Of a stretch of DNA of 64,000 nt, positions 45,437-60,392 are shown one piece after another. The stretch comes from Planctomycetota bacterium (lineage in GTDB: Bacteria > Planctomycetota > Planctomycetia > Gemmatales > HRBIN36), in contig JACTMY010000010.1 of NCBI GenBank assembly GCA_014584395.1, positions 1-64,000 of the forward strand. Reading direction: 5' to 3'. Each line of letters opens with the position of its first letter. Within the stretch, counting starts at the first letter, position 1. The position numbers and the translations under genes were made by a program. Under the pieces are notes generated by a model, which made no database searches, was not told the DNA's origin, and saw only the letters and a program-made list of their open reading frames with translations.

Positions 45437-45955
45437 TCAGACTTTTTCTTCCTGTCGGGCCTTTTCCTCCAAGCGCAGCCGTTCTTCGAGTCGATCCCGT
45501 ATTCTTTTGATTTCTAGGATCAACCGATTGACGTCTTCCTTGAAATAGGGGTCTCCTCTGACTTCGGTGACATGGATGTCCAATAGCCAATGCAATGACG
45601 CTGGGATTTGATCGAGGCGAGGAAAAGGCGCGTTTTTCACGATGATGGACATCACCAAGCGTTTGTTGCGATTGGCTGCTTCCAACTCGTAGCGCACCCA
45701 ATCATCGTCATTCATGATGCGCGGCTGACCCGACTTCTGATCGACGCAACTCGTCCACTGTTTGCCGATCAGCGCTAATACAATGTCACTCTTCGATACG
45801 GACTGCTCAAGGACCCGTTTCCATTTTTGGCCTGGTCGAATGGAATCCAAGTCTTTGAACAGATTCTCACTGCCGAATTCCACGACTAACCGATCATAGA
45901 GACGACCCGCCAGATCGTCGGTATCTTTTCGTCGATAATTGATGAACAGCTTCAT
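45437..45955 (-). CDS. TIR-domain protein
   Basis: This encodes 172 residues. MKLFINYRRKDTDDLAGRLYDRL and NLFKDLDSIRPGQKW are the box 1 and box 2 motifs of bacterial TIR domains of the 'FISYRR' type. DDWVRYELEAA carries Glu90 at the position of the catalytic glutamate of NAD-cleaving TIRs. The C-terminal 40 residues form a charged coiled coil (IKRIRDRLEERLRLEEKARQEE). TIR proteins act as NADases in antiphage defence or as signalling adaptors. Here it heads an operon with a zinc-ribbon membrane protein and a small membrane protein. NADase activity is inferred, not shown. The 256-base spacer upstream (45956-46211) holds no gene that I can support. Confidence 0.85.
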   Translation of the reverse strand: MKLFINYRRKDTDDLAGRLYDRLVVEFGSENLFKDLDSIRPGQKWKRVLEQSVSKSDIVLALIGKQWTSCVDQKSGQPRIMNDDDWVRYELEAANRNKRLVMSIIVKNAPFPRLDQIPASLHWLLDIHVTEVRGDPYFKEDVNRLILEIKRIRDRLEERLRLEEKARQEEKV

Positions 45956-46211: not shown

Positions 46212-46538
46212 TTATTTGGTTTGAAGGAGTCCGTGGTCGCGCATCCAAGAAAAGATGGCCACAGCCGAGGGCAAGCCGATCGTGCTGGCTGAGAGGGCCA
46301 CCAGTTGCTCGATGGCGGCAGGAGGCACGCCCGCCGCCAAGGCTTTGCGAATGCCGGCATGCACGGCCCCCTCCTTCATGGAACCGATGGCGATGGCGAG
46401 TTTAACCAGGCGAATCGCATGCTCGTCCAGCGGGCCTTGCCGTTCGGCCTCGTGAATTTTGTCCCATGCCTCGCCCAATTGCGGATAACGCTCGATAAAG
46501 GCGAAATACGTGGGAGGAGGGCCAGCGGGTTCGGACAT
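46212..46538 (-). CDS. Carboxymuconolactone decarboxylase-family protein, last gene of the NXR-like operon
   Basis: This encodes 108 all-helical residues: LVKLAIAIGSMKEGAVHAGIRKALAAGVPPAAIEQLVALSASTIG. This is the CMD/AhpD fold core, but the redox C-x-x-C of AhpD is absent, so peroxidase function is unlikely. AAGGAG lies 8 bases before the ATG. It follows the hemerythrin gene by 40 bases on the same strand and ends at a 6-bp hairpin (46195-46211) that may be a weak terminator. Role in the operon unknown. Confidence 0.8.
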   Translation of the reverse strand: MSEPAGPPPTYFAFIERYPQLGEAWDKIHEAERQGPLDEHAIRLVKLAIAIGSMKEGAVHAGIRKALAAGVPPAAIEQLVALSASTIGLPSAVAIFSWMRDHGLLQTK

Positions 46539-46578
46539 GATGGGACTCCTTGCGATCGTGGACGATCCGTGTTGGTCC

Positions 46579-47205
46579 CTAGCTTACAACCCCTCCATGG
46601 GAATGTCCACACCCGCATGCCCCGGTCTTGGCGATTTCGCTCACCCGATCCCGCACTTGGAAATGCTGGGCCAACTCCTCGGCCAAGGCCAGGTATTTTT
46701 CATGCACGCCGGTCCCAATGTCGTCTGCCTCCACGCGCGCATAGGCCTCGAGCAATTGCTGATCATCCTCCGCCGTGGCCACCTGATCCGCCATGGCGAA
46801 CAGGCAATGATCTTCCTTGTGGATATGTTCGCGCAGCAGTTGGACATAGGCTTTGGCATGATGGCAAAAGGATTGAACGTCGCTGTCGATGCCCTGCCCC
46901 GCTCCGGGAATGGCCCCGCTCATTTGTTGGATATAGTGACGACCCAGCGTGTGTTCGCGGAGCATCACACCCGTCGGCCCCATTTGGCGGGAGAAGCCGC
47001 GCTGCTCCAGCCAAGGGAAGAGATGATCCTCCTCCTTGCCATGGTGGCATCGGTCCGCGAAGGCTTTCAGAAAATCCACGATTTGGTCGGCGCGATCCGC
47101 TTCCAGCCGGCCGGCGGTTTGCGTCCTGTGCACCAAGGCTTCCAGGCAATCCAGGACCTGCTCAATGACGCGGTGTTCCTGCATCAGAATCTGAGTCGCT
47201 TGCAT
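46579..47205 (-). CDS. Hemerythrin-like (HHE) domain protein
   Basis: This encodes 208 residues of an alpha-helical di-iron binding domain. Ligands are visible in order: LMQEHRVIEQVL, CHHGKEEDHLFPWLE, LREHTLGRHY and LLREHIHKEDHCLFAMA. The tail CGCGHSHGG is Cys/His-rich and may bind another metal. HHE proteins bind O2 or NO. Within an operon for an oxygen-sensitive molybdo/Fe-S enzyme a scavenging or sensing role is plausible. AAGGAG lies before the ATG; the upstream chaperone gene ends 59 bases away. Confidence 0.88.
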   Translation of the reverse strand: MQATQILMQEHRVIEQVLDCLEALVHRTQTAGRLEADRADQIVDFLKAFADRCHHGKEEDHLFPWLEQRGFSRQMGPTGVMLREHTLGRHYIQQMSGAIPGAGQGIDSDVQSFCHHAKAYVQLLREHIHKEDHCLFAMADQVATAEDDQQLLEAYARVEADDIGTGVHEKYLALAEELAQHFQVRDRVSEIAKTGACGCGHSHGGVVS

Positions 47206-47264
47206 GTCTCTTCTCCTTCATGGCCGGGGCATCGCCAAGATGCCTTGAGGGTTGCCGTTCGCAA

Positions 47265-48047
47265 TCACGCACGACGCTGCTCCGCGCACCCTGCGCAGTC
47301 CAAGCCCGCGTCGGCTTCCAAATCGGGCGTGGGCTGCATGGGAGCTTGGGGTGCTTCCAAGCCGAACCATCTGCGTTCGAAGGTGACGAACGAGGCCAAG
47401 ACTTGGGCCAATTCGGCATAATACCCTTCTCCCGCTTTAAATCGCAAACCTTTGGCGAAAGAGGGCACCCACCATGCCAGATGGGCTTCAAAAAAGGACT
47501 TGGCCGCTTCCGCGCACAGCCAACCCCGCGACCGCCCCAGATCATCTGCGCTGGCCAAACGCTCTTTCATAAGCAGCAAGGCCATGAATTCCAGTTCGAG
47601 AGTCAAATGGTCCGGCCGTTCCGAGGCGTTCGCGGGAGCCTGCACGCCAAAGGCATGGTAAAACCCCGCGATGTCGGCTAACTGCTGCGTCCGAAAGAAC
47701 GGTTCGTTATTCGGCTGAAACTCGGTCTCAAAAGGCGGACATTCCCGGCAACTCATCAACCCAAAGACGCGTTCGTATTCGGTCCGCCATTCTTCGAAGG
47801 AAAGATCGTGAAACAACGTCCATAGCGTGCGGAAGTTGAGCCGTTCGGGGCCGATTTCACCGAACCCCAATTGATCGGTGAACGCCGCCGATTCCAAGCG
47901 GAGCAGTTCCGCGGCGGCTTGAAGGTAATACAGCGATTCGGGGTTGAAGAAATCGATGCGCGAGGGATGACGCGGATCCGTCAAGGCCGATGCCAGGAAT
48001 CGGTAGATGCCCTCGCGAGCCAATGGCAGAGAGATGTTCGCAACCAT
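47265..48047 (-). CDS. TorD/NarJ-type molybdoenzyme chaperone
   Basis: This encodes 260 residues from the ATG at 48047, which has a perfect AGGAGG 6 bases upstream; this start decides against the longer frame to 48107. The fold is all-helical: REGIYRFLASALTDP at the start, then EEWRTEYERVFGLMSCRECPPFETEF, which matches the TorD-family E-Y-x-x-x-F...PPYE region, and LELEFMALLLMKER. The C-terminus has a CAGC. Such chaperones bind the catalytic subunit during molybdopterin insertion and hold it back from Tat export. It lies directly after the Fe-S subunit gene (10-base gap), the normal order in Nar/Nxr/Pcr/Ebd operons. Confidence 0.86.
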   Translation of the reverse strand: MVANISLPLAREGIYRFLASALTDPRHPSRIDFFNPESLYYLQAAAELLRLESAAFTDQLGFGEIGPERLNFRTLWTLFHDLSFEEWRTEYERVFGLMSCRECPPFETEFQPNNEPFFRTQQLADIAGFYHAFGVQAPANASERPDHLTLELEFMALLLMKERLASADDLGRSRGWLCAEAAKSFFEAHLAWWVPSFAKGLRFKAGEGYYAELAQVLASFVTFERRWFGLEAPQAPMQPTPDLEADAGLDCAGCAEQRRA

Positions 48048-48057
48048 GATCCGCCTC

Positions 48058-49350
48058 CTAGATCGAGTTCGCATGCTTGGCGAACGGGCGTTTGTGGATG
48101 GGTTCATCGATCGTCACGCGCACGACTTCCTTGCCGAATTTGTTGAAGCCCATGACGGTGTCGTTATAAAGATGCTGCACCTTGATTTGCCCATTCGGCA
48201 TCTTGATCGGTACTTCCGCCACCTTGGGGCCCTTTTCGATCTTGAATTTGAACAGAATTTGCCGCTGTGCTCGGAAGAGCTGCAAGACCGCCAGCAGTTC
48301 CCGGTCCGGGCAGCAATACTGTTCGATCGCCCGGTCGACGCCGGGACCGAACATTTGCTGCAGATATCCCCGCGGGACCCAACGGGGCGGGATGTAGAAG
48401 CCGTTGGGCTCCGTGCCGAATTGCGGATAGAGCGGCAACGCCACCTGCCGTTCGCGGATGAGATAGCAGAGCGGGTTTTCGGGATCATTGGCCCATTTCC
48501 CATCGTCGCCGATCTTGACCAGTCCCTGCATGCGAATCTTGCCGACGCACACGGACATGCAGCGGGTTTCGACCGGTTCGCCATTGGGACTGAGTTCGGG
48601 ATCCTTGCCTTCGATGCGGGGATAGCAACCGACGCACTTTTCACTGGTGCGGGTGTTCGGCCGGAACATCACCTTTTTGTAGGGACAGCCCTCGACGCAT
48701 TTGCGGTAACCGCGGCACCGCTCCTGGTCGATGAGAACGATGCCGTCCTCGGGCCGCTTGTAGATGGCTTGGCGGGGGCAGGCTCCCAAACAGCCGGGAT
48801 AGGTGCAATGATTACAAATGCGAGCCAAGTAAAAGAACCAGACTCGGTGTTCGGGCAATTGCGACGTTTGATCGAAGGCGCCGGGCTGATACTTCATTCC
48901 CTGAGCGGCATCCTCATGCAAATTGGGCGTCCGCCATTCCGCTTCCGTGGGCTGATAACCCAGAACCGCCTGCGGACCTTCCGGTCCGACGTATTTTTTA
49001 GCCGCGTCGAAGATGGTCATGCCGGTGAATTCCCCATAGGGTTTTTCCCGGCCGTTCTTGGCGGCGGCATCCCACGATTGCTGGCCCGGATTAACCCCTT
49101 CCAGCATCGACAACAGCTTGGCGTCCCAGTTTCTCGGGTAGCCGCCGAAGGGCTTCGTTTCGACGTTGTTCCACCACATCGATTCTTGCCCTTTGGCAAA
49201 CGTCCACGTGCTTTTGCACGCCATCGTGCACGTCTGACAGGCAATACAACGATTGATGTTGAACACAAAGGCGAATTGCCATTGCGGATGCTTCTCCTCG
49301 TAGGGGTAGCTCATCGGCCGGCCAAGTTGCCAGTTATAGACCATTGCCAT
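48058..49350 (-). CDS. nxrB: NXR/NarH-type Fe-S electron transfer subunit
   Basis: This encodes 430 residues, the size of NxrB. Four Fe-S cluster motifs are visible: CIACQTCTMACKSTW, CNHCTYPGCLGACP, CRGYRKCVEGCPYKK and EKCVGCYPRIE followed by CMSVCVGKI. In the third motif Tyr sits where NarH has Trp, the [3Fe-4S] position. GQESMWWNNVETKPFGGYP and YKRPEDGIVLIDQERCRGY are close to nitrite-oxidoreductase beta subunits of Nitrospira and anammox bacteria as I remember them. There is no signal peptide, so export would be by hitch-hiking with the Tat-tagged catalytic subunit. It carries electrons from the Mo subunit to the cytochrome/haem gamma subunit. Confidence 0.88.
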   Translation of the reverse strand: MAMVYNWQLGRPMSYPYEEKHPQWQFAFVFNINRCIACQTCTMACKSTWTFAKGQESMWWNNVETKPFGGYPRNWDAKLLSMLEGVNPGQQSWDAAAKNGREKPYGEFTGMTIFDAAKKYVGPEGPQAVLGYQPTEAEWRTPNLHEDAAQGMKYQPGAFDQTSQLPEHRVWFFYLARICNHCTYPGCLGACPRQAIYKRPEDGIVLIDQERCRGYRKCVEGCPYKKVMFRPNTRTSEKCVGCYPRIEGKDPELSPNGEPVETRCMSVCVGKIRMQGLVKIGDDGKWANDPENPLCYLIRERQVALPLYPQFGTEPNGFYIPPRWVPRGYLQQMFGPGVDRAIEQYCCPDRELLAVLQLFRAQRQILFKFKIEKGPKVAEVPIKMPNGQIKVQHLYNDTVMGFNKFGKEVVRVTIDEPIHKRPFAKHANSI

Positions 49351-49362
49351 GGCAAGTTCCTT

Positions 49363-49767
49363 TCACGAGAGAGGTTCACCCAAGATTTCCCGCCGCCGCA
49401 GCGAAAGTTGTATCAAACCCATGTCGTCGTCTTCCTCGATCAGGTCCGGGTCGGGCGTTTCATCCACGATCGCCGTGACGCGGATGCCCCCCATCTGGCG
49501 ATCCAATTCGTCTATGGCCCGACGGACTTGTTCGGAACCGAAACGCTGCAGCAAATCCTGAAGCATCGGATATTGAGGGTCCTCGAACAGTCCAAAAAGC
49601 TGCTCGGGGGGCCAGCCCATCCAAAGGTACTCTTCGACCATGCATTGCAGCATGTACCCCGGATCGCCCATGGCCGCGTTGGCCATCAATTCCATGGGGT
49701 CCTCGGGGAACATTTCACGCTCGAGGGGATGCACCTTGGGGACCCATGATTCAGAGGAAGCTTGCAT
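49363..49767 (-). CDS. Unknown acidic protein encoded between the NXR-like alpha and beta subunits
   Basis: This encodes 134 residues of no recognised family. It is helical and Met/Asp/Glu-rich, with HPLEREMFPEDPMELMANAA and a motif VEEYLWMGWPPEQLFGLFEDPQY, then a variable acidic tail (DETPDPDLIEEDDD). There are no cysteines in cluster motifs, no signal peptide and no membrane segment. Gaps are 18 bases from the alpha gene and 12 bases to the beta gene, so it is made together with the two structural subunits. A dedicated assembly factor or small subunit is the natural inference from position. Confidence 0.65.
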   Translation of the reverse strand: MQASSESWVPKVHPLEREMFPEDPMELMANAAMGDPGYMLQCMVEEYLWMGWPPEQLFGLFEDPQYPMLQDLLQRFGSEQVRRAIDELDRQMGGIRVTAIVDETPDPDLIEEDDDMGLIQLSLRRREILGEPLS

Positions 49768-49785
49768 GGCCTGCCGCCTTAAAGA

Positions 49786-52700
49786 TTAACCACGGATTTT
49801 GATGAAGCCGCCGCTGAGATACTGCAGATTCAAGGGAGCGTCATTGCCCGGCGTGAAGGGCGTTTCCGCGACTTCCCACGAACCTTTGCCGCCCAAGCCG
49901 CCATCCTCGGCCTTGACGATGCGAACCAGCGTTTCCTTGGGGACGGTGTTGATGGCGTGATTGTCGGCCTCGCCGCCGAACATAAAGGCCATTTTCACCT
50001 TGGCCTTGTGAAACAACGTGTCGGTCTGGTGCATAGGCATGAGCCAATTGCGGGTGCACGATTGCTGGGCGCCGTAGCGCAAGTTGGCCTGGTAGCCCGT
50101 GTCCGCCGACCGCGCTCGACCGTCGGGGCTGTTTTCATGGGCATGCACCGTTTTTTCCGTGGCGATGAAGGGGGCATGCTTGATCATCACGACGCCGCGC
50201 GGATAACTCGGATTATAAATCACCCGCAGCATCAACCGGGCCACCTTGGCCCGCGCCGGATCCTGCTGCCAACCCCGGAAGGGCCGGTCCGCGGGATTGG
50301 AGTCCACATAGGCATAATCCCCGTTCTTCAACCCCAAGTCCTTGGCGTCATCCGGATTCACGTGCATCTGGTGATCGCCATAACCGGGCAGACGCTTGTC
50401 GGTCCGGAAGGGATCGCCATGGTTCGAATCCCAGATGATGTGCCAATCGACCGTCGACCACGAAGAGTGAACGCGGTGCCGGCTCTTCGGCGTCAACAGG
50501 AAATAGCGATATCCCGCTTCCCACAAGGGATTCTTGGTCTGCTTCACTTCCTGCCAGGGCAGTTTGACGTTGCGAATGGTCCTCTCGTCCCAATGCATCG
50601 CGTCGCGGGGGATGCCGAAGTCATCGGGGCGGATCAGCGGGTTCGTGCTCACGATAACGTTAGGCAAATAAGGCGTTGCTTCCGGCCCCTCGCGATGGAC
50701 GATGAAGTTTTCGCCATGCAGGATCGCTTCGGGAATATCACAATAACTGTTCAGCCGCCCCGTATCGGTCCAGAACGGCACCCCGTCGTGCAAGTTCTCA
50801 TAGAACGGAATGCGCGGATAGGTGCGGAAGAGCATAAGGGCCACGCCAGATTCGCCGTACTTGCCGGCCATGATATCGTCCACGGTATAGCCGCGCGTCG
50901 TCGTCGAGGCATCGAGCAACCGCTGGATATAGACTTTCGCTCCATCCTGGCGGTCTTTCACCAGGAAATGCCAGTAGTCCGCAAAGCGCCGGTCGCCCGT
51001 TTCCTTGGTCAGCGCCTCGGCGGCCTCGGCCAAGATCAAGGAATCATCCCGCGTATCATGGACGGGAGGAATTCCCCCTTTCCATATGTTCAGGAAGGGA
51101 TTGGAACAGGAGGCGGTGATCTCCAGGTTCTGAAACTCCATCCAAGTATTGACGGGGTAGACCAGATCGGCGTACTCGCAGGAACTGGTCATCTCGCAAT
51201 CCTGCGCGATGATGCAATCGATCTTCGGATTGACCACGAAGAACATGTCATAGGCATGCTTGGCGTTGTTGAACAGATTGACGTTGGTGAACCACAGGAA
51301 CTTCGTCGGCGTGGGCATGTGGGTCTGGCCGGTGAAGCACTTGCGGCCATACTTCGGCGTGTTCACGACCAGGGGCCGCTCGCCATGATTCCAATAGGCT
51401 GGCTCCTCGTCCTTGGAATATTTCTTGACCTTGACTGCCTTGCCATCGGCCTTCGGATCGAGATTGGGATGGAAGGGGTCTTCCGCGATCCAGCCCAGAA
51501 AGCCCGGCAAGTCGCCCGAACCTTGGAACAGGGCTGCTTTGTAATTCCCCGCCCAGGTGAAACAGCCCGCGCCCGGCCGGCCCAACTGACCGGTCAGCAT
51601 GAGGGGAAGGTACTGAGCGCGATTGGCCAGCGTGGCGTGGAACCAATGGTTGATCCCCTCGCCCACGTGGATGGCCACGGCGTGCCCCCGCTCAGTGGTC
51701 TCCCAAATATCGCGCGCCAGTTGCGCGATCAAGTCTTGCCGAGAGCCGGTGATCTGCGAAACCGTCTCGAGATCGTAGTCCTTCAGATTGATCTGATAGG
51801 CGTCCCACAAGGTCATGACTTCAACTTCACTGCCATCCACCAATTTGATCTTGCCCCGATAGGACAAAGCCGGATCAATGCCAGCCTGCGCCAAACGTTC
51901 ACCCATCTGATCCCGAGTCAAGGGGCGCAAAGCCTTTTGCTTCTCGTCATAGATCATGAAATCGCCGATCTTGGCGTATTGCTCGTCGGTGAGATGTTGG
52001 TAGGCGTAAGAGGGTCCGGTTTTCTCCAGGCCGGGTTGGTAACCTTGAATCACGTCGCTAGCGCGCAGCCGCTTGAGGGTGTCGGTGCGGATGAGCAGCG
52101 GGAAATCGGTATAGGCTTTGACGAAGTCGGCCTTGTACCAACCCTGGTCGATCATGTGTTTGGTAACGCCCAAGAACAAAGCCGTGTCCGTGCAACCGGG
52201 ACGCACCTGAATCCAATAGTTGGCCTTGGTGGCGGGAGGTCCGTATTCAGGCGTGATGACCACGATCTTGCCGCCGCGCTCCATCAGTTCGTTGAACCAA
52301 TGGTTGTCGGGCATCTTGTTCTCGACCAGGTTCTTGCCGCATTGAATATGCAGCTTGGCATGGCGCATGTCGTTGAAATCGCAATCGGACGTTTGCAGGC
52401 CATGGACAAAGGGATGGCCCGGGGCCTGATCGCCATGCCAGGTGTAATTTGACCAAAGCCGCCCGCCTTGAGCGTCCTTGGGATCGACCTTGCGCACGTT
52501 TTGATCAAGCAGGGCGAGCATGTTGGCCCAACGATACATGCCATACTTGCCAATGACGCCCAGCAGTCCCATGCCGCCGCGCAGCTTGAACGTCCTGGTG
52601 CCCGCGCCATGGCACTCGTCGATCATCTCCGGTTCATAACCATCCGCCTTGAAGCGGCGCACACCCTCCGGGCCGCTATACGTCTTGGCGATGGCCACGG

Positions 52701-53241
52701 CCGCTTTCGCATGATACCGATACATGTCCTCCCAGGAGACGCGAACAAACGTGTCCGTGCCCCGGCTGTTGAAGCGGTACTTGTCGCGCAACGATGGATC
52801 ATCGGAAAGCGAAGGGAAACCGGCGTCCGCCCATTCCTTCCATCCCTTGCGGATCAGGGGCCATCGCAAGCGGTACGGCCCATACAACCGCCGCTGCTGC
52901 GAGAAACCCTTCGCACAGCCGCGCGGATTCCAATGTTCCGTGTCGCAGTGGCCGTAAAGATCCTTGATCTTCCCGCTTTCATATTGCTGCTCGGAACGGA
53001 GCACGATGCCATTGCGAACGTAGGCGATCATGCGGCAATTGTGCGTGTCGTTCGGCGCGCAGACCCATGAGAAGGAACGATCATAACGGTATTGATCGCG
53101 GTAGGTTTCCTCCCAGCCCCGATTCGGATAGACTCCGAGCGGATTGGCCACGTTCACTGGCTGCAAGCCATACAACTTAGGCAGCATCAACGATTGCGAG
53201 GTCAAGGTCAAACTGGCCGTTAGGAAGTCGCGGCGATTCAT
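49786..53241 (-). CDS. nxrA: NXR-type molybdopterin oxidoreductase catalytic subunit (nitrite oxidoreductase / Nar family)
   Basis: This encodes 1151 residues, the size of NxrA. The N-terminus MNRRDFLTASLTLTSQS is a Tat signal (RRDFL), so the active site should face the periplasm. The proximal cluster region is C61-x3-D65-x3-C69...C109 (WVCAPNDTHNCR ... WNPRGC), as in periplasmic NXR-type enzymes, where NarG has His-x3-Cys-x3-Cys. GLQTSDCDFNDMRHAKL aligns with the NarG segment carrying the Mo-ligand Asp; here Asp291. YGPYRLRWPLIRKGWKEWADAGFP, NHGERPLVVN and later blocks follow NXR enzymes more closely than E. coli NarG. GGAGGAG precedes the ATG. Reaction direction (nitrite to nitrate, or reverse, or another oxyanion) cannot be settled from sequence. 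Confidence 0.88.
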   Translation of the reverse strand: MNRRDFLTASLTLTSQSLMLPKLYGLQPVNVANPLGVYPNRGWEETYRDQYRYDRSFSWVCAPNDTHNCRMIAYVRNGIVLRSEQQYESGKIKDLYGHCDTEHWNPRGCAKGFSQQRRLYGPYRLRWPLIRKGWKEWADAGFPSLSDDPSLRDKYRFNSRGTDTFVRVSWEDMYRYHAKAAVAIAKTYSGPEGVRRFKADGYEPEMIDECHGAGTRTFKLRGGMGLLGVIGKYGMYRWANMLALLDQNVRKVDPKDAQGGRLWSNYTWHGDQAPGHPFVHGLQTSDCDFNDMRHAKLHIQCGKNLVENKMPDNHWFNELMERGGKIVVITPEYGPPATKANYWIQVRPGCTDTALFLGVTKHMIDQGWYKADFVKAYTDFPLLIRTDTLKRLRASDVIQGYQPGLEKTGPSYAYQHLTDEQYAKIGDFMIYDEKQKALRPLTRDQMGERLAQAGIDPALSYRGKIKLVDGSEVEVMTLWDAYQINLKDYDLETVSQITGSRQDLIAQLARDIWETTERGHAVAIHVGEGINHWFHATLANRAQYLPLMLTGQLGRPGAGCFTWAGNYKAALFQGSGDLPGFLGWIAEDPFHPNLDPKADGKAVKVKKYSKDEEPAYWNHGERPLVVNTPKYGRKCFTGQTHMPTPTKFLWFTNVNLFNNAKHAYDMFFVVNPKIDCIIAQDCEMTSSCEYADLVYPVNTWMEFQNLEITASCSNPFLNIWKGGIPPVHDTRDDSLILAEAAEALTKETGDRRFADYWHFLVKDRQDGAKVYIQRLLDASTTTRGYTVDDIMAGKYGESGVALMLFRTYPRIPFYENLHDGVPFWTDTGRLNSYCDIPEAILHGENFIVHREGPEATPYLPNVIVSTNPLIRPDDFGIPRDAMHWDERTIRNVKLPWQEVKQTKNPLWEAGYRYFLLTPKSRHRVHSSWSTVDWHIIWDSNHGDPFRTDKRLPGYGDHQMHVNPDDAKDLGLKNGDYAYVDSNPADRPFRGWQQDPARAKVARLMLRVIYNPSYPRGVVMIKHAPFIATEKTVHAHENSPDGRARSADTGYQANLRYGAQQSCTRNWLMPMHQTDTLFHKAKVKMAFMFGGEADNHAINTVPKETLVRIVKAEDGGLGGKGSWEVAETPFTPGNDAPLNLQYLSGGFIKIRG

Positions 53242-53279
53242 AACGTGCTCCTCCCGGAGAGTAACATCGAGGCGTCCGA

Positions 53280-54923
53280 CTACTCCACCGTCAATTCATG
53301 CCAAATGGAGATTTGCTTTTGACCATTGCGATCCCGGGCCGCTCCATCCCAGATCGAGAAGGCAATGAAGCACTTCTTACCCGAGTTTAAGCTCACGCCT
53401 TCATTTGGTTTCAGGGCCAAGGGACGCACAAACGTGACCGACCATTGCCCCGTCTGATATTGAGCTTCAGCCTTGACCCACTGAGAACCTCGGGGGCGGA
53501 ACGTGGTGCTGCCCAGACCCGACGCCATCAGATGGCTCGCGCTTTGTCCAGCCTCGGAGGCGCTGTTTTGGTTGTTCGCAGCCCTGGCTGTATAAAAATT
53601 AGGCGGCGGACGATCCGACTTGGGCAAGCGCTTCAACAACTCGAAATAAAGCGGCAGGTCAAATGGATAATCATCGAGGATGTGCTTCGCCTTGGTTTGA
53701 TCCACGGCCTGGCTGGCTTTCCACAGCCAGATGTCGACCACGCCAAAACCGTGTGCCCCCATGCCAATGAACGGTTCTTGCTTGCCATCGAAGATTTGAA
53801 CGGAAGCCTGGTCCTCATAGTCCTCGGGCCGCAGAATCACGTCGTTTTTCGAATCATCCTTCCACGTCAAGCGGATGGCCAACTGCTGGCCGTCATGCAG
53901 CGCTTGCACCTGAAGTTCGGGGTTTTTCCATTCCCGCCACCAGAGGGGAGCCGTGACAATGAAAGTCGACCCAACGCTATTCCAATCGGCACCTTCCAAG
54001 CGGTCCACGCGGCGGGCCGCCAATTGCTGCCGCTTGAATTCGACCTTGGCTTGGGTCTCTTCCGGCGCCAGGGAGCGGATGAAATGCACCATGTCGGCGA
54101 TTTCCGCCGGCTTCATATGCGGGCTGCCGGGCATGGGCGTGCCGGGCATGCCGATGTAAGTGCGACGAAACAGGGAGGCCACGTCCCGCCCGCCTTTAAA
54201 GATGCCCTGTGTAAAATCGCGGGGACGGGTGGGCGTGCCATCGTCATCCCTCTGATCTTTGCCGCCTTCGCCCCGCCCTGTTTCTCCATGACAAGTCGCA
54301 CAATGGGTCATGTACAGATCCCTGCCCCTCATCACGCTCGCCTGATCCTCCGAGGGCAATTGGCCAGGAAGCGTCAAGAGGTCCCCCGGCGTCGTTTGCC
54401 GCAGGGCTTCCTTTTTGATATGTTCCTCATCCACATCATCGCCAGAGTCCTCATACGCTTTCCTCAACCGTTTTTCGATGCCTGCTCGAGAAAGCCAGCG
54501 CACATACTGCACTAGCGAGTTCAGCTCCGGTTCTGACAAGTGGCCAAACGCCGTCATCGCCGAGCCGGGCATGCCGCGCCGGATCACCTGCATCAAGTCG
54601 TCATCGGTTGGGATGCGATTGACCGTGGAGATGACGCGGTATTTGCCTTCCTGGAAGTTGCGCGGCTTGGGGTAAAGAAACTGCGCCGCAATTCCCAATC
54701 CATCTCCAGCATCTCCGTGACACGCCGCACAATGGCGAGTGAAAAGGGCTTTCCCCATTTCCAACAGGGGAGAAGGAGTGTCTGGTTGCGTGGCCGAGGC
54801 CGCCGACGATGGATGAACGATCACTTCCACGGACGCACCGGCCTTCGTCCAGGCCATCATGCCACAGGCGCATCCAATCCCGATCCCCAGGATGACTAGT
54901 CCAGTCTTGATGGGTTGTGTCAT
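53280..54923 (-). CDS. nxrC: NXR gamma-like subunit: two cytochrome c domains fused to an ethylbenzene-dehydrogenase-type haem domain
   Basis: This encodes 547 residues. The N-terminal hydrophobic segment (about 7-27) is a signal/anchor. Cytochrome c domain 1 has C65-x2-C68-H69 (HCAACHG) and a Met-rich MPGSAMTAFGHL. Domain 2 has C208-x2-C211-H212 (HCATCHG) and MPGTPMPGSPHM. From about residue 320 (WWREWKNPELQVQALHDGQQLAIRLTWKD) to the end is an EB_dh/DMSO-reductase gamma-like beta-sandwich that binds a b-type haem. It would take electrons from the Fe-S subunit and pass them through c haems to soluble carriers or an oxidase. First gene of the operon; the alpha gene follows after 38 bases. A sigma-54 promoter lies about 50 bases upstream. 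Confidence 0.85.
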   Translation of the reverse strand: MTQPIKTGLVILGIGIGCACGMMAWTKAGASVEVIVHPSSAASATQPDTPSPLLEMGKALFTRHCAACHGDAGDGLGIAAQFLYPKPRNFQEGKYRVISTVNRIPTDDDLMQVIRRGMPGSAMTAFGHLSEPELNSLVQYVRWLSRAGIEKRLRKAYEDSGDDVDEEHIKKEALRQTTPGDLLTLPGQLPSEDQASVMRGRDLYMTHCATCHGETGRGEGGKDQRDDDGTPTRPRDFTQGIFKGGRDVASLFRRTYIGMPGTPMPGSPHMKPAEIADMVHFIRSLAPEETQAKVEFKRQQLAARRVDRLEGADWNSVGSTFIVTAPLWWREWKNPELQVQALHDGQQLAIRLTWKDDSKNDVILRPEDYEDQASVQIFDGKQEPFIGMGAHGFGVVDIWLWKASQAVDQTKAKHILDDYPFDLPLYFELLKRLPKSDRPPPNFYTARAANNQNSASEAGQSASHLMASGLGSTTFRPRGSQWVKAEAQYQTGQWSVTFVRPLALKPNEGVSLNSGKKCFIAFSIWDGAARDRNGQKQISIWHELTVE

Positions 54924-54972: not shown

Positions 54973-54990
54973 TTGCAAAGAGGATGCCAA
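54973..54990 (-). promoter_or_regulatory. Sigma-54 (-24/-12) promoter of the NXR-like operon
   Basis: On the minus strand the sequence TTGGCATCCTCTTTGCAA matches the sigma-54 consensus (TGGCAC-N5-TTGCW) with GG and GC elements exactly 10 bases apart. The GC element is about 50 bases upstream of the gamma-like subunit ATG at 54923, giving a leader of about 40 bases. Confidence 0.75.
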
Positions 54991-56243: not shown

Positions 56244-57707
56244 ATGGTCAGTCCCAAGCCAGAAACGGAAATCGCTTCGACGCCAGCCGTTGAACCGGCT
56301 GGACCGAGGGAAGCGCTTCCCGTTTCAGGCTCGCCGCCGCTGAACCTCCTTCTCATCGACGATGATGATGACTTTCGCGGCATCGTGGCGCGGCGGTTTC
56401 TGCGCCGCGGCCATGAGGTGAACCATTCGGGATCGCCTCTCGAAGCTTTGAGCTGGATCGAACGACAATCCTTCGACGTCATCGTTCTCGACATCTCCAT
56501 GCCCGAGATGGATGGCGTCACGGCCTTGGCCCAAATCAAAAAATTAGCCCCAGAGACGCAAGTGATCATGCTGACGGGCCAGGCCACACTGGAGACGGCG
56601 GTTCGAGCGATGAAGCTGGGCGCCTACGATTATTTGACCAAGCCCTGCGAACTGGCCGAGTTGGAAATGCACGTTCAACGAGCGGCGGAGAAAGCTCGCC
56701 TGGCCAGGGAAAACCGCAATCTGAAAGCGGTCCTGCGCAAGCAAACACCCGCGGTTCAGTTGATAGGCCATTCCTCCGGCCTGCGGCAAGTCATGCACAT
56801 GATTCAACGCGTTGCACCGACTGCCAATGCCGTGCTAATCCTGGGCGAGAGCGGCACGGGCAAGGAGTTGGTCGCGCGCGCCATCCATCAAAGCAGCCCG
56901 CGTTCGGAACAACCCCTGGTCACCGTTAATTGTGCCGCGCTGCAGGACAGCTTGCTGGAAAGCGAATTGTTTGGCCATGAAAAGGGCGCCTTCACCTCCG
57001 CCCAGTCCGCCAAGCCCGGATTATTTGAAGTGGCCAATGCCGGTACGTTGTTTATTGATGAGGTCGGAGAGCTTTCTCCCACCTTGCAAGCCAAACTGCT
57101 CCGCGTTCTTGAAGATGGCCGCATTCGCCGCGTGGGAGCGGTCAAGGAGATTAAAACCGACGTTCGCATCATCGCGGCCACGAATCGCGATCTGGCCAAG
57201 GCCGTCGAGGAAAAACGTTTTCGCGATGACCTCTATTATCGGCTGAACGTCGTGCCCATTGTCGTGCCTCCTCTACGAGAACGACGCGAAGACATTCCCT
57301 TGCTTGTCGAACATTTCCTTAAGCTCAGCCCGGATGGCCCCGCCGCGGTGTCGCCGCAAGCGATGGATGCGCTCACGCGCTATGCCTGGCCTGGCAACGT
57401 CCGGGAACTCAGCAACGTCATCGCTCGAGCCAAGATTCTCGCCGAGGGGCAGCGCATCGAGTTGATGGATCTACCCGACCACGTGGCCAACGCCCAATCC
57501 CTCGCCGATCTGGACGGTTCGACGCCCCCCGTTTCGTCGCCGGCCAATCGATTCGAGGAGAATGAAAGGCAGATCCTTGTCCGTGTCTTGAAACAACACC
57601 ATGGGAACAAGGTGCATGCTGCCGCTGATCTGGGCATCAGCCGGCGCAAGCTCTATCGCTTGTTGGAGAAACATGGTCTGAAAAACACGGAGTGGTCCAA
57701 TCATTGA
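56244..57707 (+). CDS. Sigma-54-dependent response regulator (NtrC family)
   Basis: This encodes 487 residues. A Pro-rich N-terminal extension (about 30 residues) precedes the receiver domain, with acidic pocket LLIDDDDDF, phospho-acceptor Asp83 in VLDISMPEMDG, the Thr in MLTGQ and the Lys in YLTKP. The AAA+ domain has Walker A GESGTGKE, the sigma-54 contact loop GAFTSA (a common variant of GAFTGA), Walker B LFIDEVGEL and YAWPGNVREL. The C-terminal Fis-type helix-turn-helix reads NKVHAAADLGISRRKLYRLLEKHGL. It lies between the copper-protein gene and a globin-coupled kinase, and the two nearby sigma-54 promoters are its likely targets. It overlaps the convergent kinase gene by 7 bases. Confidence 0.93.
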   Translation: MVSPKPETEIASTPAVEPAGPREALPVSGSPPLNLLLIDDDDDFRGIVARRFLRRGHEVNHSGSPLEALSWIERQSFDVIVLDISMPEMDGVTALAQIKKLAPETQVIMLTGQATLETAVRAMKLGAYDYLTKPCELAELEMHVQRAAEKARLARENRNLKAVLRKQTPAVQLIGHSSGLRQVMHMIQRVAPTANAVLILGESGTGKELVARAIHQSSPRSEQPLVTVNCAALQDSLLESELFGHEKGAFTSAQSAKPGLFEVANAGTLFIDEVGELSPTLQAKLLRVLEDGRIRRVGAVKEIKTDVRIIAATNRDLAKAVEEKRFRDDLYYRLNVVPIVVPPLRERREDIPLLVEHFLKLSPDGPAAVSPQAMDALTRYAWPGNVRELSNVIARAKILAEGQRIELMDLPDHVANAQSLADLDGSTPPVSSPANRFEENERQILVRVLKQHHGNKVHAAADLGISRRKLYRLLEKHGLKNTEWSNH

Positions 57708-58936
57708 GGCAAAATGATATGAAAGGCGGTTCCCTCCTGCAGTCGCGACGTGCACCAAATGCGCCCCCCTTGCTCCTCGACGATTTGCCGCACCATGTAA
57801 AGTCCCAACCCGTGGCCCGGCAAATGTTCGTGCTGTTTGAGTCGTCGGAAAGGCGCGAAAATGCGCTGCTGGTCGGCGTCGCTGATCCCCGGGCCGTTGT
57901 CCCCAACGGCCAACTGCACCTGCTGCCCCTCGCCATGGGCCGAGACCCAGATTCGACCAGGGCTTTTATCCATGAATTTCACGGCATTCGAGATGAGGTG
58001 ATACAGCACTTCACGCAGACGAGCCGGGTGGGTAAGCAGATCGGGCATGGTTTCTTGAATTTCAAACTGAATCGGCTCCGTGTCGAAATCCAGGCGGATG
58101 CGCTCCAGGACTTCATCGACCAAGGTGCGCAATTTGACTCGTTGCCGCTGACTTGGTTGCGCCGCGGCTTCGCTCATCGACAGCAATTCATCGATCATGC
58201 CCTTCATGTGGCGCGTGCGGTTCAGGGCGGCCTCGATCAATTGGCGGGCTTCGACAGGCACCGTTTGGCCAAACTCATCGATAAACTCCTCGCAGAAACC
58301 CGAGATCGTCGCCAGGGGCGTTTTGAGATCATGGGAAGCCATGCGGGCGAACTCGCGCAGTTCCGTATTGGACTGCGTGTACAGCGCCAGCGCTTGTCGC
58401 AGGTCCATCGTGGAGCGTGCATAATACGAATCCAAGGTCAAGCCGATGTCCAGCAGAATGTGCTTCATCAGCGAGGCCAACCCCGCTTCGAAGCTGCCCC
58501 GAGCCTCGGGGGGAACGTCGCGAACTTGTTGAAAGGCCAGTTGGATATATTGATTGAATGCCCCCAAGAACCAGGCAGGCTCAATGCCCGCGGCAGCATG
58601 GCGGTCGCCAATGCGGCGCCGCTCGGCCACCCGCGAGCCATCCATCCGCGCATCAAAGAGACTCACAAAATACTGCAATTGGGCTGCTTTCAAACGCTCC
58701 ACCAAACGTTCATCACGCAAGAAAAACGCCGTGGCGGAAAATTGCAGCAAGTGGGCGTAAAACTGGTCGACAAAAGCCCGGTTGACCGCTTCGAAGATCG
58801 GCTTCAGTGCTCGGACACGTTCGACGTCCTCCGAGGTCAACTGCAAAAATGCACACCGTTCGTCAAGCAGCGCTTCATCGGAAAGGTGAATCGTCTCTTC
58901 CGTCGTCGATGCGTCCCAATTTGGCTGATGGCTCAT
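57701..58936 (-). CDS. Globin-coupled sensor histidine kinase
   Basis: This encodes 411 residues. Residues about 20-175 are a protoglobin/globin-sensor domain: LKPIFEAVNRAFVDQFYAHLL, then RRRIGDRHAAAGIEPAWFLGAFNQY, in which His113 is the proximal haem ligand. The dimerisation/phospho-acceptor domain has His202 in MASHDLKTPLATISGF. The HATPase domain has LYHLISNAVKF (N box), VGDNGPGISDAD (G1) and GHGLGLYMVRQIVEEQGG (G2). There are no membrane segments, so it should be a cytosolic sensor of O2, NO or CO. The gene is convergent with the sigma-54 response regulator (stop codons overlap by 7 bases), its probable partner. Confidence 0.92.
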   Translation of the reverse strand: MSHQPNWDASTTEETIHLSDEALLDERCAFLQLTSEDVERVRALKPIFEAVNRAFVDQFYAHLLQFSATAFFLRDERLVERLKAAQLQYFVSLFDARMDGSRVAERRRIGDRHAAAGIEPAWFLGAFNQYIQLAFQQVRDVPPEARGSFEAGLASLMKHILLDIGLTLDSYYARSTMDLRQALALYTQSNTELREFARMASHDLKTPLATISGFCEEFIDEFGQTVPVEARQLIEAALNRTRHMKGMIDELLSMSEAAAQPSQRQRVKLRTLVDEVLERIRLDFDTEPIQFEIQETMPDLLTHPARLREVLYHLISNAVKFMDKSPGRIWVSAHGEGQQVQLAVGDNGPGISDADQQRIFAPFRRLKQHEHLPGHGLGLYMVRQIVEEQGGRIWCTSRLQEGTAFHIILPQ

Positions 58937-59036
58937 AGGATGCTTTCTGACTCATGGCATGAACAGTGAATGAGGTCTCGCGCCGATCAAGTCGACTCGA
59001 TTTCAGGGTATTACTAGCATGTTCAAGGATTTCCTC

Positions 59037-60392
59037 ATGACTTCAATCCATCCCAACGGCTTGGCTCCCCGATCGCTCCGGGCGATCCAGCTTGGAGCAT
59101 GCCTCCTTATCTTAGCGGCCTCGCTTGGCTCGCTGCAAGGCGATGATCTCGAAGCAGAACCGATTCGCTATTCCGAATCGACGCCGCGCAATCTTATCAG
59201 CCGGCTCCAAGAGCGCATCAATGCTGGCACCTTAACGTTGTCCTATGATCCGCAGCGCGGTTACTTGCCCTCGGTGCTCAAAGCCTTGGGAGTCGATCCC
59301 TCCTCGCAAATGTTGGTCTTCTCCAAAACCAGCCTGCAGCGCCATCGCATCGGCCCCAAAACACCACGGGCTCTTTACTTCAACGATGAGGTCTACGTCG
59401 GCTATTGCCATCAAGGGGACGTCATGGAGTTTTCCGCCGTCGATCCGATGCTCGGCACGGTGTTTTACACCTTGGATCAACAAGACCAGCCCAAACCGGT
59501 CTTCCGCAGGCAATGGGATTCTTGCTTGATCTGTCATGGTTCTTCCGCCTTGCAAGGGTATCCTGGCCACTTGGTCCGATCCGTCTATCCCGATTCGCAG
59601 GGTCATCCGATCCTGTCCACCGCCACGTTTCGTACCGATCAGTCCAGCCCCTGGAAGCAACGCTGGGGCGGTTGGTACGTCACCGGCACCAGCGGCCAGC
59701 AATGGCACATGGGGAATCTGATCGTCGAAGATAAACGCCGCGTCGATGCGTCCGATCTAAAACCCAGCAGTCATCGCGCCAAGTTGGATGAATTCTTCGA
59801 CGTGCGTCAACACCTGACGCCGCAGAGCGACGTGGTGGCCTTGATGGTCTTCGAACATCAAACGGAAATGCACAATCGCCTTACCCGTGCCAACTTGCAA
59901 ACCAGGCGCGCCTTGCATGAAGCCAGCGAACTGCGACGCGAGTTAAAATTGCCAGCCCATCATGAATTCGAAAGCACGAACAGCCGCCTGCGTGCCGCGG
60001 GTGAACCCTTGGTAAAATATCTCTTTTTCGTGAAAGAAACGCCATTGGGCGAGCCGATCCAGGGGACGTCCGCGTTCGCCCGCCATTTTCCCGCCGCCGG
60101 TCCGCGTGATGATCTTGGACGTTCGCTCAGGGATTTGGATCTACAAAGGCGGCTGTTCAAATATCCATGCAGTTACTTGATCTATTCGGAAGCCTTTGAC
60201 GCCCTGCCTGAGCCGATGTTGGATTATGTCTATCGCCGCATGAATGAGATCCTGTCAGGCCAAGATCGTTCCCCGGAGTTTGCCCATCTCTCGCCACCGG
60301 ATCGTCGAGCCATACTCGAAATCCTCCTCGCCACCAAGCGAACCATTCCCCCTGTTTGGCGAAAGGCCATGGAAGCGACGTTGCGCCAATGA
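59037..60392 (+). CDS. Exported monohaem c-type protein of the planctomycete 'CxxCH' family
   Basis: This encodes about 451 residues from the ATG at 59037 (AAGGA 8 bases upstream); an in-frame ATG at 59019 lacks such a site. A signal segment (QLGACLLILAASLGSLQG) is followed by the conserved blocks LYFNDEVYVGYCHQGDVMEFSAVDP and TVFYTLDQQ. A haem-binding motif CLICHGSSALQGYPGHLVRSVY lies at about residues 163-167, and RWGGWYVTGTSGQQWHMGNLI follows. This combination recurs in planctomycete and acidobacterial proteins of unknown function. It could relay electrons for the adjacent NXR-like system, but no direct evidence links them. It is divergent from the globin-kinase gene. Confidence 0.75.
   Translation: MTSIHPNGLAPRSLRAIQLGACLLILAASLGSLQGDDLEAEPIRYSESTPRNLISRLQERINAGTLTLSYDPQRGYLPSVLKALGVDPSSQMLVFSKTSLQRHRIGPKTPRALYFNDEVYVGYCHQGDVMEFSAVDPMLGTVFYTLDQQDQPKPVFRRQWDSCLICHGSSALQGYPGHLVRSVYPDSQGHPILSTATFRTDQSSPWKQRWGGWYVTGTSGQQWHMGNLIVEDKRRVDASDLKPSSHRAKLDEFFDVRQHLTPQSDVVALMVFEHQTEMHNRLTRANLQTRRALHEASELRRELKLPAHHEFESTNSRLRAAGEPLVKYLFFVKETPLGEPIQGTSAFARHFPAAGPRDDLGRSLRDLDLQRRLFKYPCSYLIYSEAFDALPEPMLDYVYRRMNEILSGQDRSPEFAHLSPPDRRAILEILLATKRTIPPVWRKAMEATLRQ

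What the first reader, a model, noticed from the sequence alone, without database searches (positions are those of the whole stretch)
46212..54923. NXR-type nitrite oxidoreductase-like operon in a non-anammox-looking planctomycete
Seven minus-strand genes with gaps of about 10-60 bases encode a diheme-cytochrome-fused gamma subunit, a Tat-exported 1151-residue Mo subunit, an unknown 134-residue protein, a 430-residue Fe-S subunit, a TorD/NarJ chaperone, a hemerythrin and a CMD protein. Alpha and beta subunit motifs (WVCAPNDTHNCR, CIACQTCTMACK, WWNNVETKP, CRGYRKC) resemble Nitrospira/anammox NXR more than NarGH, and no NarI-type quinol-oxidising cytochrome b is present. The surrounding genome looks Gemmata-like, not anammox. 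This could be a nitrite oxidation, nitrate/chlorate respiration or novel oxyanion module.
Basis: partly seen in the sequence, partly recalled or inferred. Interest (0 to 1): 0.85.

Follow-up and report, generated by a model that had tools for sequence, protein, structure and literature searches.

The report
Nitrite/nitrate enzyme in non-anammox planctomycete
A planctomycete that lacks the key anammox gene carries a complete nitrite-to-nitrate enzyme operon of the kind used by anammox bacteria and Nitrospira; such operons were already reported in this phylum, but this one contains a small conserved protein between its two catalytic genes for which no published description was found.

Summary
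Minus strand 46212-54923 encodes a Tat-exported NxrA (59% identical to Kuenenia NxrA, full length), an NxrB with the FeS cysteines, a gamma subunit (diheme cytochrome c fused to the heme-b domain, both heme-b ligands kept), a TorD chaperone, a hemerythrin, a CMD protein and a 134-aa protein (p134). Trees place NxrA and NxrB in the periplasmic NXR clade with anammox bacteria and Nitrospira, far from NarG. The host genome (87% complete) shows no hydrazine synthase, RuBisCO or acetyl-CoA synthase, but has aa3 and cbb3-like oxidases, NrfHA and NorB. NXR in non-anammox Planctomycetota is already published (Suarez 2023). Added here: (1) 89 of 393 sampled Planctomycetota genomes carry such an alpha subunit; (2) the non-anammox operons share NxrC(diheme)-NxrA-p134-NxrB-TorD; (3) p134 is an uncharacterised family in 32 of 40 non-anammox NXR genomes, 0 of 31 anammox-side and 2 of 304 NXR-less genomes; (4) a divergent amicyanin-like cupredoxin, homologous to the gene beside Kuenenia nxrA, belongs to the module and was missed. 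Direction cannot be settled from sequence; I lean slightly to nitrite oxidation, with reverse nitrate reduction possible.

The parts
53280..54923 (-). nxrC: gamma subunit, 547 aa; N-terminal signal/anchor, two cytochrome c domains (CxxCH at residues 65 and 208) fused to an EB_dh heme-b domain with ligands Met388 and Lys536
49786..53241 (-). nxrA: Mo-bisMGD catalytic subunit, 1151 aa; Tat motif MNRRDFL; Cys61/Asn64/Asp65 and Asp271 equal to Kuenenia Cys67/Asn70/Asp71 and Asp275
49363..49767 (-). p134: uncharacterised small helical protein between nxrA and nxrB, conserved in the non-anammox NXR operons; no evident signal peptide, no heme motif
48058..49350 (-). nxrB: iron-sulfur subunit, 430 aa; 14 cysteines conserved in 44/44 homologues and Cys45 in 39/44
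47265..48047 (-). TorD/NarJ-family chaperone (probable start at Met21 of the 280-aa ORF)
   Evidence: start is inference
46579..47205 (-). hemerythrin HHE protein, distantly YtfE-like; recurs beside nxr in several relatives (e.g. L016, L019, L030, L033)
46212..46538 (-). carboxymuconolactone-decarboxylase-family (CMD) protein; also beside nxr in L016
55311..56078 (+). probably secreted amicyanin/plastocyanin-like cupredoxin, divergent from the operon; type-1 Cu ligands conserved; homologue of the gene next to nxrA in Kuenenia and other anammox loci
56244..57707 (+). NtrC-type sigma-54 response regulator; NtrC-type genes also lie beside Nitrospira and f79 nxr loci; role in nxr control inferred
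57701..58936 (-). soluble protoglobin-sensor histidine kinase, candidate gas sensor partner of the NtrC protein; role inferred

Best explanation
This is a periplasmic nitrite oxidoreductase (NXR) of the anammox/Nitrospira type in a planctomycete that appears to be a heterotroph. Shown by sequence: family membership, Tat export signal, active-site, FeS and heme-b ligands, a diheme c extension, a dedicated chaperone and a linked cupredoxin. Inferred: TorD loads the Mo cofactor and NxrB travels out with NxrA. Nitrite is oxidised at Mo; electrons pass FS0, FS1-4 and heme b (Met/Lys) to the two c hemes, then to the cupredoxin or a soluble cytochrome, and on to the aa3 or cbb3-like oxidase. Nitrite would be an extra electron donor rather than the basis of autotrophy. 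The enzyme can probably run backwards as a nitrate reductase when oxygen is low. p134 most likely acts in assembly or export of the NxrA-NxrB pair or is a small fourth subunit (inferred from position, lack of a signal peptide and strict association only).
For: Full-length match to structurally solved Kuenenia NxrA, NxrB and the C-terminal part of NxrC. Window NxrA sits in a 100/100 clade with anammox and Nitrospira, apart from the ~41% clade that holds probable Thermogutta terrifontis and from NarG; NxrB agrees. Mo-ligand Asp, substrate Asn, FS0 Asp and Tat motif present. Heme-b Met in all 59 gammas that cover it and Lys in 61/61. Cupredoxin with conserved Cu ligands shared with the anammox nxr neighbour. 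aa3 and cbb3-like oxidases present; no HZS, RuBisCO or CdhC. Kuenenia NXR works in both directions in vitro (PMC8387239). Confidence that it is an NXR-type enzyme, whatever the direction: about 0.95.
Against: Sequence does not fix direction: Suarez et al. state the same. The host also has NrfHA and NorB and no second NarG-like Mo enzyme was found in the own-genome search, which would suit a nitrate-to-ammonium route. Genome is 87% complete, so absences are not proof; reductive TCA enzymes, bc1 and NirS were not tested. No expression or activity data.
Confidence: 0.52

Rival explanations
1. Same NXR-type enzyme, but used in the cell mainly as a periplasmic nitrate reductase: electrons come from quinol through a bc1, NrfD-type or similar complex and cytochromes or the cupredoxin, via the diheme gamma, to nitrate; nitrite goes on to ammonium by NrfHA, with NorB removing NO.
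For: Intact NrfHA and NorB in the genome; no other NarG-like enzyme at E<=1e-3 in the genome; no RuBisCO or CdhC; an NrfD, FeS and tetraheme cytochrome operon on the same contig; hemerythrin and NO-related genes; Thermogutta, a nitrate reducer, has a related enzyme beside complex III plus Nrf (PMC5673643).
Against: The probable Thermogutta enzyme lies in the other, ~41% clade. NrfA is not enriched with this NXR across the phylum: 7/37 against 70/304, p=0.68. The characterised members of the clade oxidise nitrite.
Confidence: 0.38
2. The enzyme acts on another substrate of the type II DMSO reductase family (chlorate, perchlorate, selenate, dimethyl sulfide or a hydrocarbon).
For: Gamma has the EB_dh domain and the models TIGR03479, TIGR03478, EbdA and EbdB are hit.
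Against: All those hits are far below cut-off, while the match to Kuenenia NXR is about ten times stronger and full length; the active-site stretch HGDQAPGHPF is identical to anammox NXR.
Confidence: 0.04
3. The operon belongs to another organism (misbinned contig) or is a very recent import with no function in this host.
For: None of 39 relatives in the family and order has it, so it is sporadic.
Against: 331-kb contig; operon GC and tetranucleotide profile among the closest to the rest of the genome; a Gemmataceae MAG (L086) carries the closest NxrB; all frames intact.
Confidence: 0.04

Closest known systems
Kuenenia stuttgartiensis NXR (kustd1699-1713; PDB 7b04)
   Same: NxrA 59% identical over full length, NxrB 63%, same active-site and heme-b ligands, TorD chaperone and cupredoxin neighbour in the cluster
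   Different: Kuenenia NxrC has no c hemes (22.5% identity); gene order C-B-TorD-orf-A-cupredoxin; no p134; NXR-T, the tubule protein, has no homologue in the window or five other stretches searched
NXR-type operons of non-anammox Planctomycetota MAGs (Suarez et al. 2023, PMC10732223; L032 and L094 here are OFTM MAGs)
   Same: Same enzyme clade and operon order NxrC(diheme)-NxrA-p134-NxrB-TorD
   Different: The window adds another lineage; p134 and the fused gamma were not mentioned in the passages of the paper read here
Nitrospira and Nitrospina NXR with alt_NxrC (PMC6606698, PMC3578206)
   Same: Periplasmic Tat-exported NxrA; alternative gammas with a heme-b domain plus c hemes, and cupredoxins, are known there
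   Different: In Nitrospira nxrAB lie apart from nxrC and no p134 lies between A and B; NxrA only 52% identical
   Same: Planctomycete, Tat-exported alpha, EB_dh gamma
   Different: 40% identical alpha in a separate clade, gamma without CxxCH, no p134

Membership tests
Periplasmic NXR (anammox/Nitrospira clade) | NxrA groups with anammox and Nitrospira NxrA, apart from NarG | tested here: met
   NxrB
Periplasmic NXR (anammox/Nitrospira clade) | Twin-arginine signal on the alpha subunit | tested here: met
   MNRRDFL at the N-terminus, read by eye
Periplasmic NXR (anammox/Nitrospira clade) | Mo-ligand Asp, substrate Asn, FS0 with 3 Cys and 1 Asp | tested here: met
   Asp271, Asn64, Cys61/Asp65 aligned with Kuenenia residues from PMC8387239
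Periplasmic NXR (anammox/Nitrospira clade) | Beta subunit with the set of FeS cysteines | tested here: met
   14 columns 44/44 and Cys45 39/44
Periplasmic NXR (anammox/Nitrospira clade) | Gamma subunit with Met/Lys heme b | tested here: met
   Met388 and Lys536
Periplasmic NXR (anammox/Nitrospira clade) | Nitrite oxidation activity | not testable with these tools
   needs enzyme or culture
Anammox metabolism | Hydrazine synthase | tested here: not met
   No PF18582 in G000; found in all f31, f98 and f79 genomes tested; genome 87% complete
Anammox metabolism | NXR-T tubule subunit | tested here: inconclusive
   None in the window or five other stretches; whole genome not searched
Membrane-bound NarGHI | NarI-type cytochrome b subunit in the operon | tested here: not met
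   Gamma is cytochrome c plus EB_dh
Ethylbenzene dehydrogenase / type II DMSO reductase equivalogs | Scores above the curated cut-off | tested here: not met
   EbdA 151 against 2000 bits; TIGR03479 293 against 985 bits

The most novel reading that the evidence does not exclude
p134 is a previously unrecognised component (assembly factor or fourth subunit) that marks a whole class of non-anammox NXR systems; these are widespread in Planctomycetota and are genuine, uncultured nitrite oxidisers outside the known NOB lineages, from within whose NXR diversity the anammox and Nitrospira enzymes branch.
Probability: 0.25. Interest if true: 0.8.

Novelty: new variant of a known kind. Interest (0 to 1): 0.52.

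Why it matters
nxrA is used as a marker for nitrite oxidisers and anammox; one ODZ study found that most nxrA-bearing organisms in two ODZs were Planctomycetota (PMC10359470). If 40 of 393 sampled Planctomycetota genomes carry this non-anammox form, marker-based budgets may be assigning nitrite oxidation or anammox wrongly. The gene pair p134 plus diheme-fused nxrC gives a simple sequence test that separates the non-anammox operons from Brocadiales and Nitrospira (f79 shares only the fused gamma). p134 is a tractable unknown: a small conserved protein next to a Mo enzyme whose assembly is poorly understood.

Tried and rejected
NrfA as an indicator of direction: present in this genome, but not enriched with NXR across the phylum (7/37 against 70/304, p=0.68). 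A sigma-54 -24/-12-like site at 54975-54989(-) ahead of nxrC: not conserved in relatives, 1 hit against 0.47 expected. Sigma-70 promoter and terminator scans: at or below chance. p134 by Pfam, PDB sequence profile and fold search: no credible match; the top PDB sequence hits are designed repeat proteins covering 22 residues. Protoglobin kinase as a conserved nxr neighbour: the five relatives' kinases checked have PAS, GAF or HAMP domains or no recognised sensor, so the globin is particular to this genome in that sample. A literature search for Gemmata with NXR found nothing.

Full report
What is there. The minus-strand block 46212-54923 encodes seven closely spaced genes, in transcription order nxrC, nxrA, p134, nxrB, torD, a hemerythrin and a CMD protein. 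Pfam and NCBIfam give cytochrome c plus EB_dh for the first, Molybdopterin for nxrA, Fer4 for nxrB, Nitrate_red_del/TorD, Hemerythrin and CMD, and nothing for p134. The TorD ORF overlaps nxrB by 50 bases as listed; a start at Met21 (48047) leaves 10 bases (inference). Base composition of the operon matches the rest of the genome.

It is an NXR. The alpha subunit matches Kuenenia NxrA (7b04_B) over its whole length with 1592 bits; the next best solved relatives (PcrA, EbdA, NarG) reach about 130-171 bits. Over an alignment it is 59% identical to Kuenenia NxrA, 52% to Nitrospira, 40% to probable Thermogutta terrifontis and 26% to E. coli NarG. The beta matches 7b04_A at 574 bits and is 63% identical to Kuenenia NxrB. 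L129 is taken as the Kuenenia locus because its NxrA N-terminus equals the PDB chain. With the residue numbers of Chicano et al. (PMC8387239), the FS0 Cys and Asp (window Cys61, Asp65), substrate Asn64 and Mo-ligand Asp271 are conserved, and the Tat motif MNRRDFL is present. In NxrB, 14 cysteine columns are invariant in 44 homologues and Cys45 is kept in 39. In NxrC the heme-b ligands correspond to Met388 and Lys536; the Met is present in all 59 gammas that cover it and the Lys in all 61.

Where it sits in the family. A 41-row tree (LG+C20) puts window NxrA with two Planctomycetota MAGs (100/99) in an 11-row clade of non-anammox sequences, nearly all Planctomycetota (100/100). The wider NXR clade (100/100) also holds anammox (f31, f98) and Nitrospira and is separate from a ~41% clade with probable Thermogutta. 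The f79 genomes (about 2 Mb, HZS-positive, basal NxrA; probably Ca. Bathyanammoxibiaceae, compare PMC9723696) branch deepest. Anammox and Nitrospira are thus small branches among many non-anammox planctomycete sequences, but the deep order within the clade is only moderately supported and differs in part between NxrA and NxrB.

How common. In 393 sampled Planctomycetota genomes, 89 have an NXR-type alpha at E<=1e-60. I group them as 31 from anammox-side families (f31, f98 and f79; HZS was found in every member tested), 18 of the ~41% band, and 40 non-anammox of the main clade. None of 39 relatives in the window's own family and order has one, so in this order it is sporadic, presumably moved horizontally (inference).

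Operon architecture. Gene maps show NxrC with two CxxCH, then NxrA, p134, NxrB and usually TorD in most non-anammox planctomycete loci. An Acidobacteria MAG (L072) has the same order; its p134 was found inside a longer reading frame. Anammox loci (L126, L128, L129) run NxrC without c hemes, NxrB, TorD, an orf, NxrA, cupredoxin. Nitrospira has nxrAB pairs without p134. f79 has the fused gamma but no p134. Gammas with a heme-b domain plus c hemes are already known as alt_NxrC in Nitrospira and Nitrospina (PMC6606698, PMC3578206); what is distinctive here is that this form is the operon's own gamma.

p134. The family (alignment A1, 41 sequences) has a conserved core of about 75 residues, no Pfam or credible PDB match, and a confident four-helix model (core pLDDT above 90) without a fold match. 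Across the 393 genomes it occurs in 32 of the 40 non-anammox main-clade NXR genomes, in 0 of 31 anammox-side genomes, 0 of 18 ~41%-band genomes and 2 of 304 without NXR (Fisher p=3e-35); the test ignores relatedness of the genomes. Seven of the eight NXR genomes without it have an nxrA match cut short. It lies within about 140 bases of nxrA in the 19 cases measured. Lacking an evident signal peptide and sitting between the two genes whose products must pair before export, it is most likely an assembly factor or small subunit (inference).

Cupredoxin. The divergent gene (55218 as ORF; likely start 55311) is homologous to the gene beside nxrA in Kuenenia and other anammox loci and to one near nxrB in a Gemmataceae MAG. 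His146, Cys182, His185 and Met188 are invariant, and its model matches amicyanin and other cupredoxins. Nitrospina work already listed cupredoxins in the conserved NXR gene set. It is the best candidate electron carrier.

Host. No hydrazine synthase alpha, NirK, RuBisCO or CdhC was found (genome 87% complete). Present are an aa3 oxidase, a cbb3-like oxidase, NorB, and NrfH with NrfA. An NrfD, FeS and tetraheme cytochrome operon lies on the same contig. The host therefore looks like a facultative heterotroph (inference).

Direction. The clade's characterised members oxidise nitrite, and the electron exit is built from carriers expected to be of high potential, which favours nitrite oxidation coupled to an oxidase. 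NrfHA, NorB and the lack of another detected nitrate reductase favour nitrate reduction. NrfA does not track NXR in the phylum, so it is weak evidence. Kuenenia NXR runs both ways (PMC8387239). I put nitrite oxidation slightly ahead.

Prior knowledge. Suarez et al. [quoted passage not shown] they too could not assign direction. The headline of the finding is therefore known. p134, its strict association and the shared operon plan were not seen in the passages of the papers read here; supplementary files were not searched.

Noticed in passing
window 57701-58936 (-) and 56244-57707 (+): A soluble protoglobin histidine kinase and an NtrC-type sigma-54 regulator lie beyond the cupredoxin; NtrC-type regulators also flank nxr in Nitrospira and f79 loci, but the five relatives' kinases checked carry other sensors or none recognised.
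   Followed up: partly
window 54975-54989 (-): TGGCATCCTCTTTGC, one mismatch from the sigma-54 -24/-12 consensus, 52 bases ahead of nxrC; not conserved in relatives.
   Followed up: yes
window 59019-60392 (+): 457-aa protein with one CxxCH heme motif and no Pfam match; a strong homologue (479 bits) lies in the nxr neighbourhood of L016 (14641-15954).
   Followed up: partly
L166 9727-12572 (G000 contig C14, about 268-271 kb): NrfD-type membrane protein, ferredoxin-like FeS protein and tetraheme cytochrome in one operon on the same contig; possible quinone-to-periplasm link.
   Followed up: partly
G438 (genome of L023): 28 matches to the hydrazine synthase alpha middle-domain family in one non-anammox planctomycete genome, an odd expansion of HZS-like proteins.
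   Followed up: no
L133 (G247, family f79): An HZS-positive genome that carries both a main-clade NXR (L132) and a ~41%-clade NXR-like operon with an adjacent cupredoxin.
   Followed up: no
window 45437-45955 (-): 172-aa protein just downstream of the operon that reads like a TIR-domain protein (by eye; no search run).
   Followed up: no
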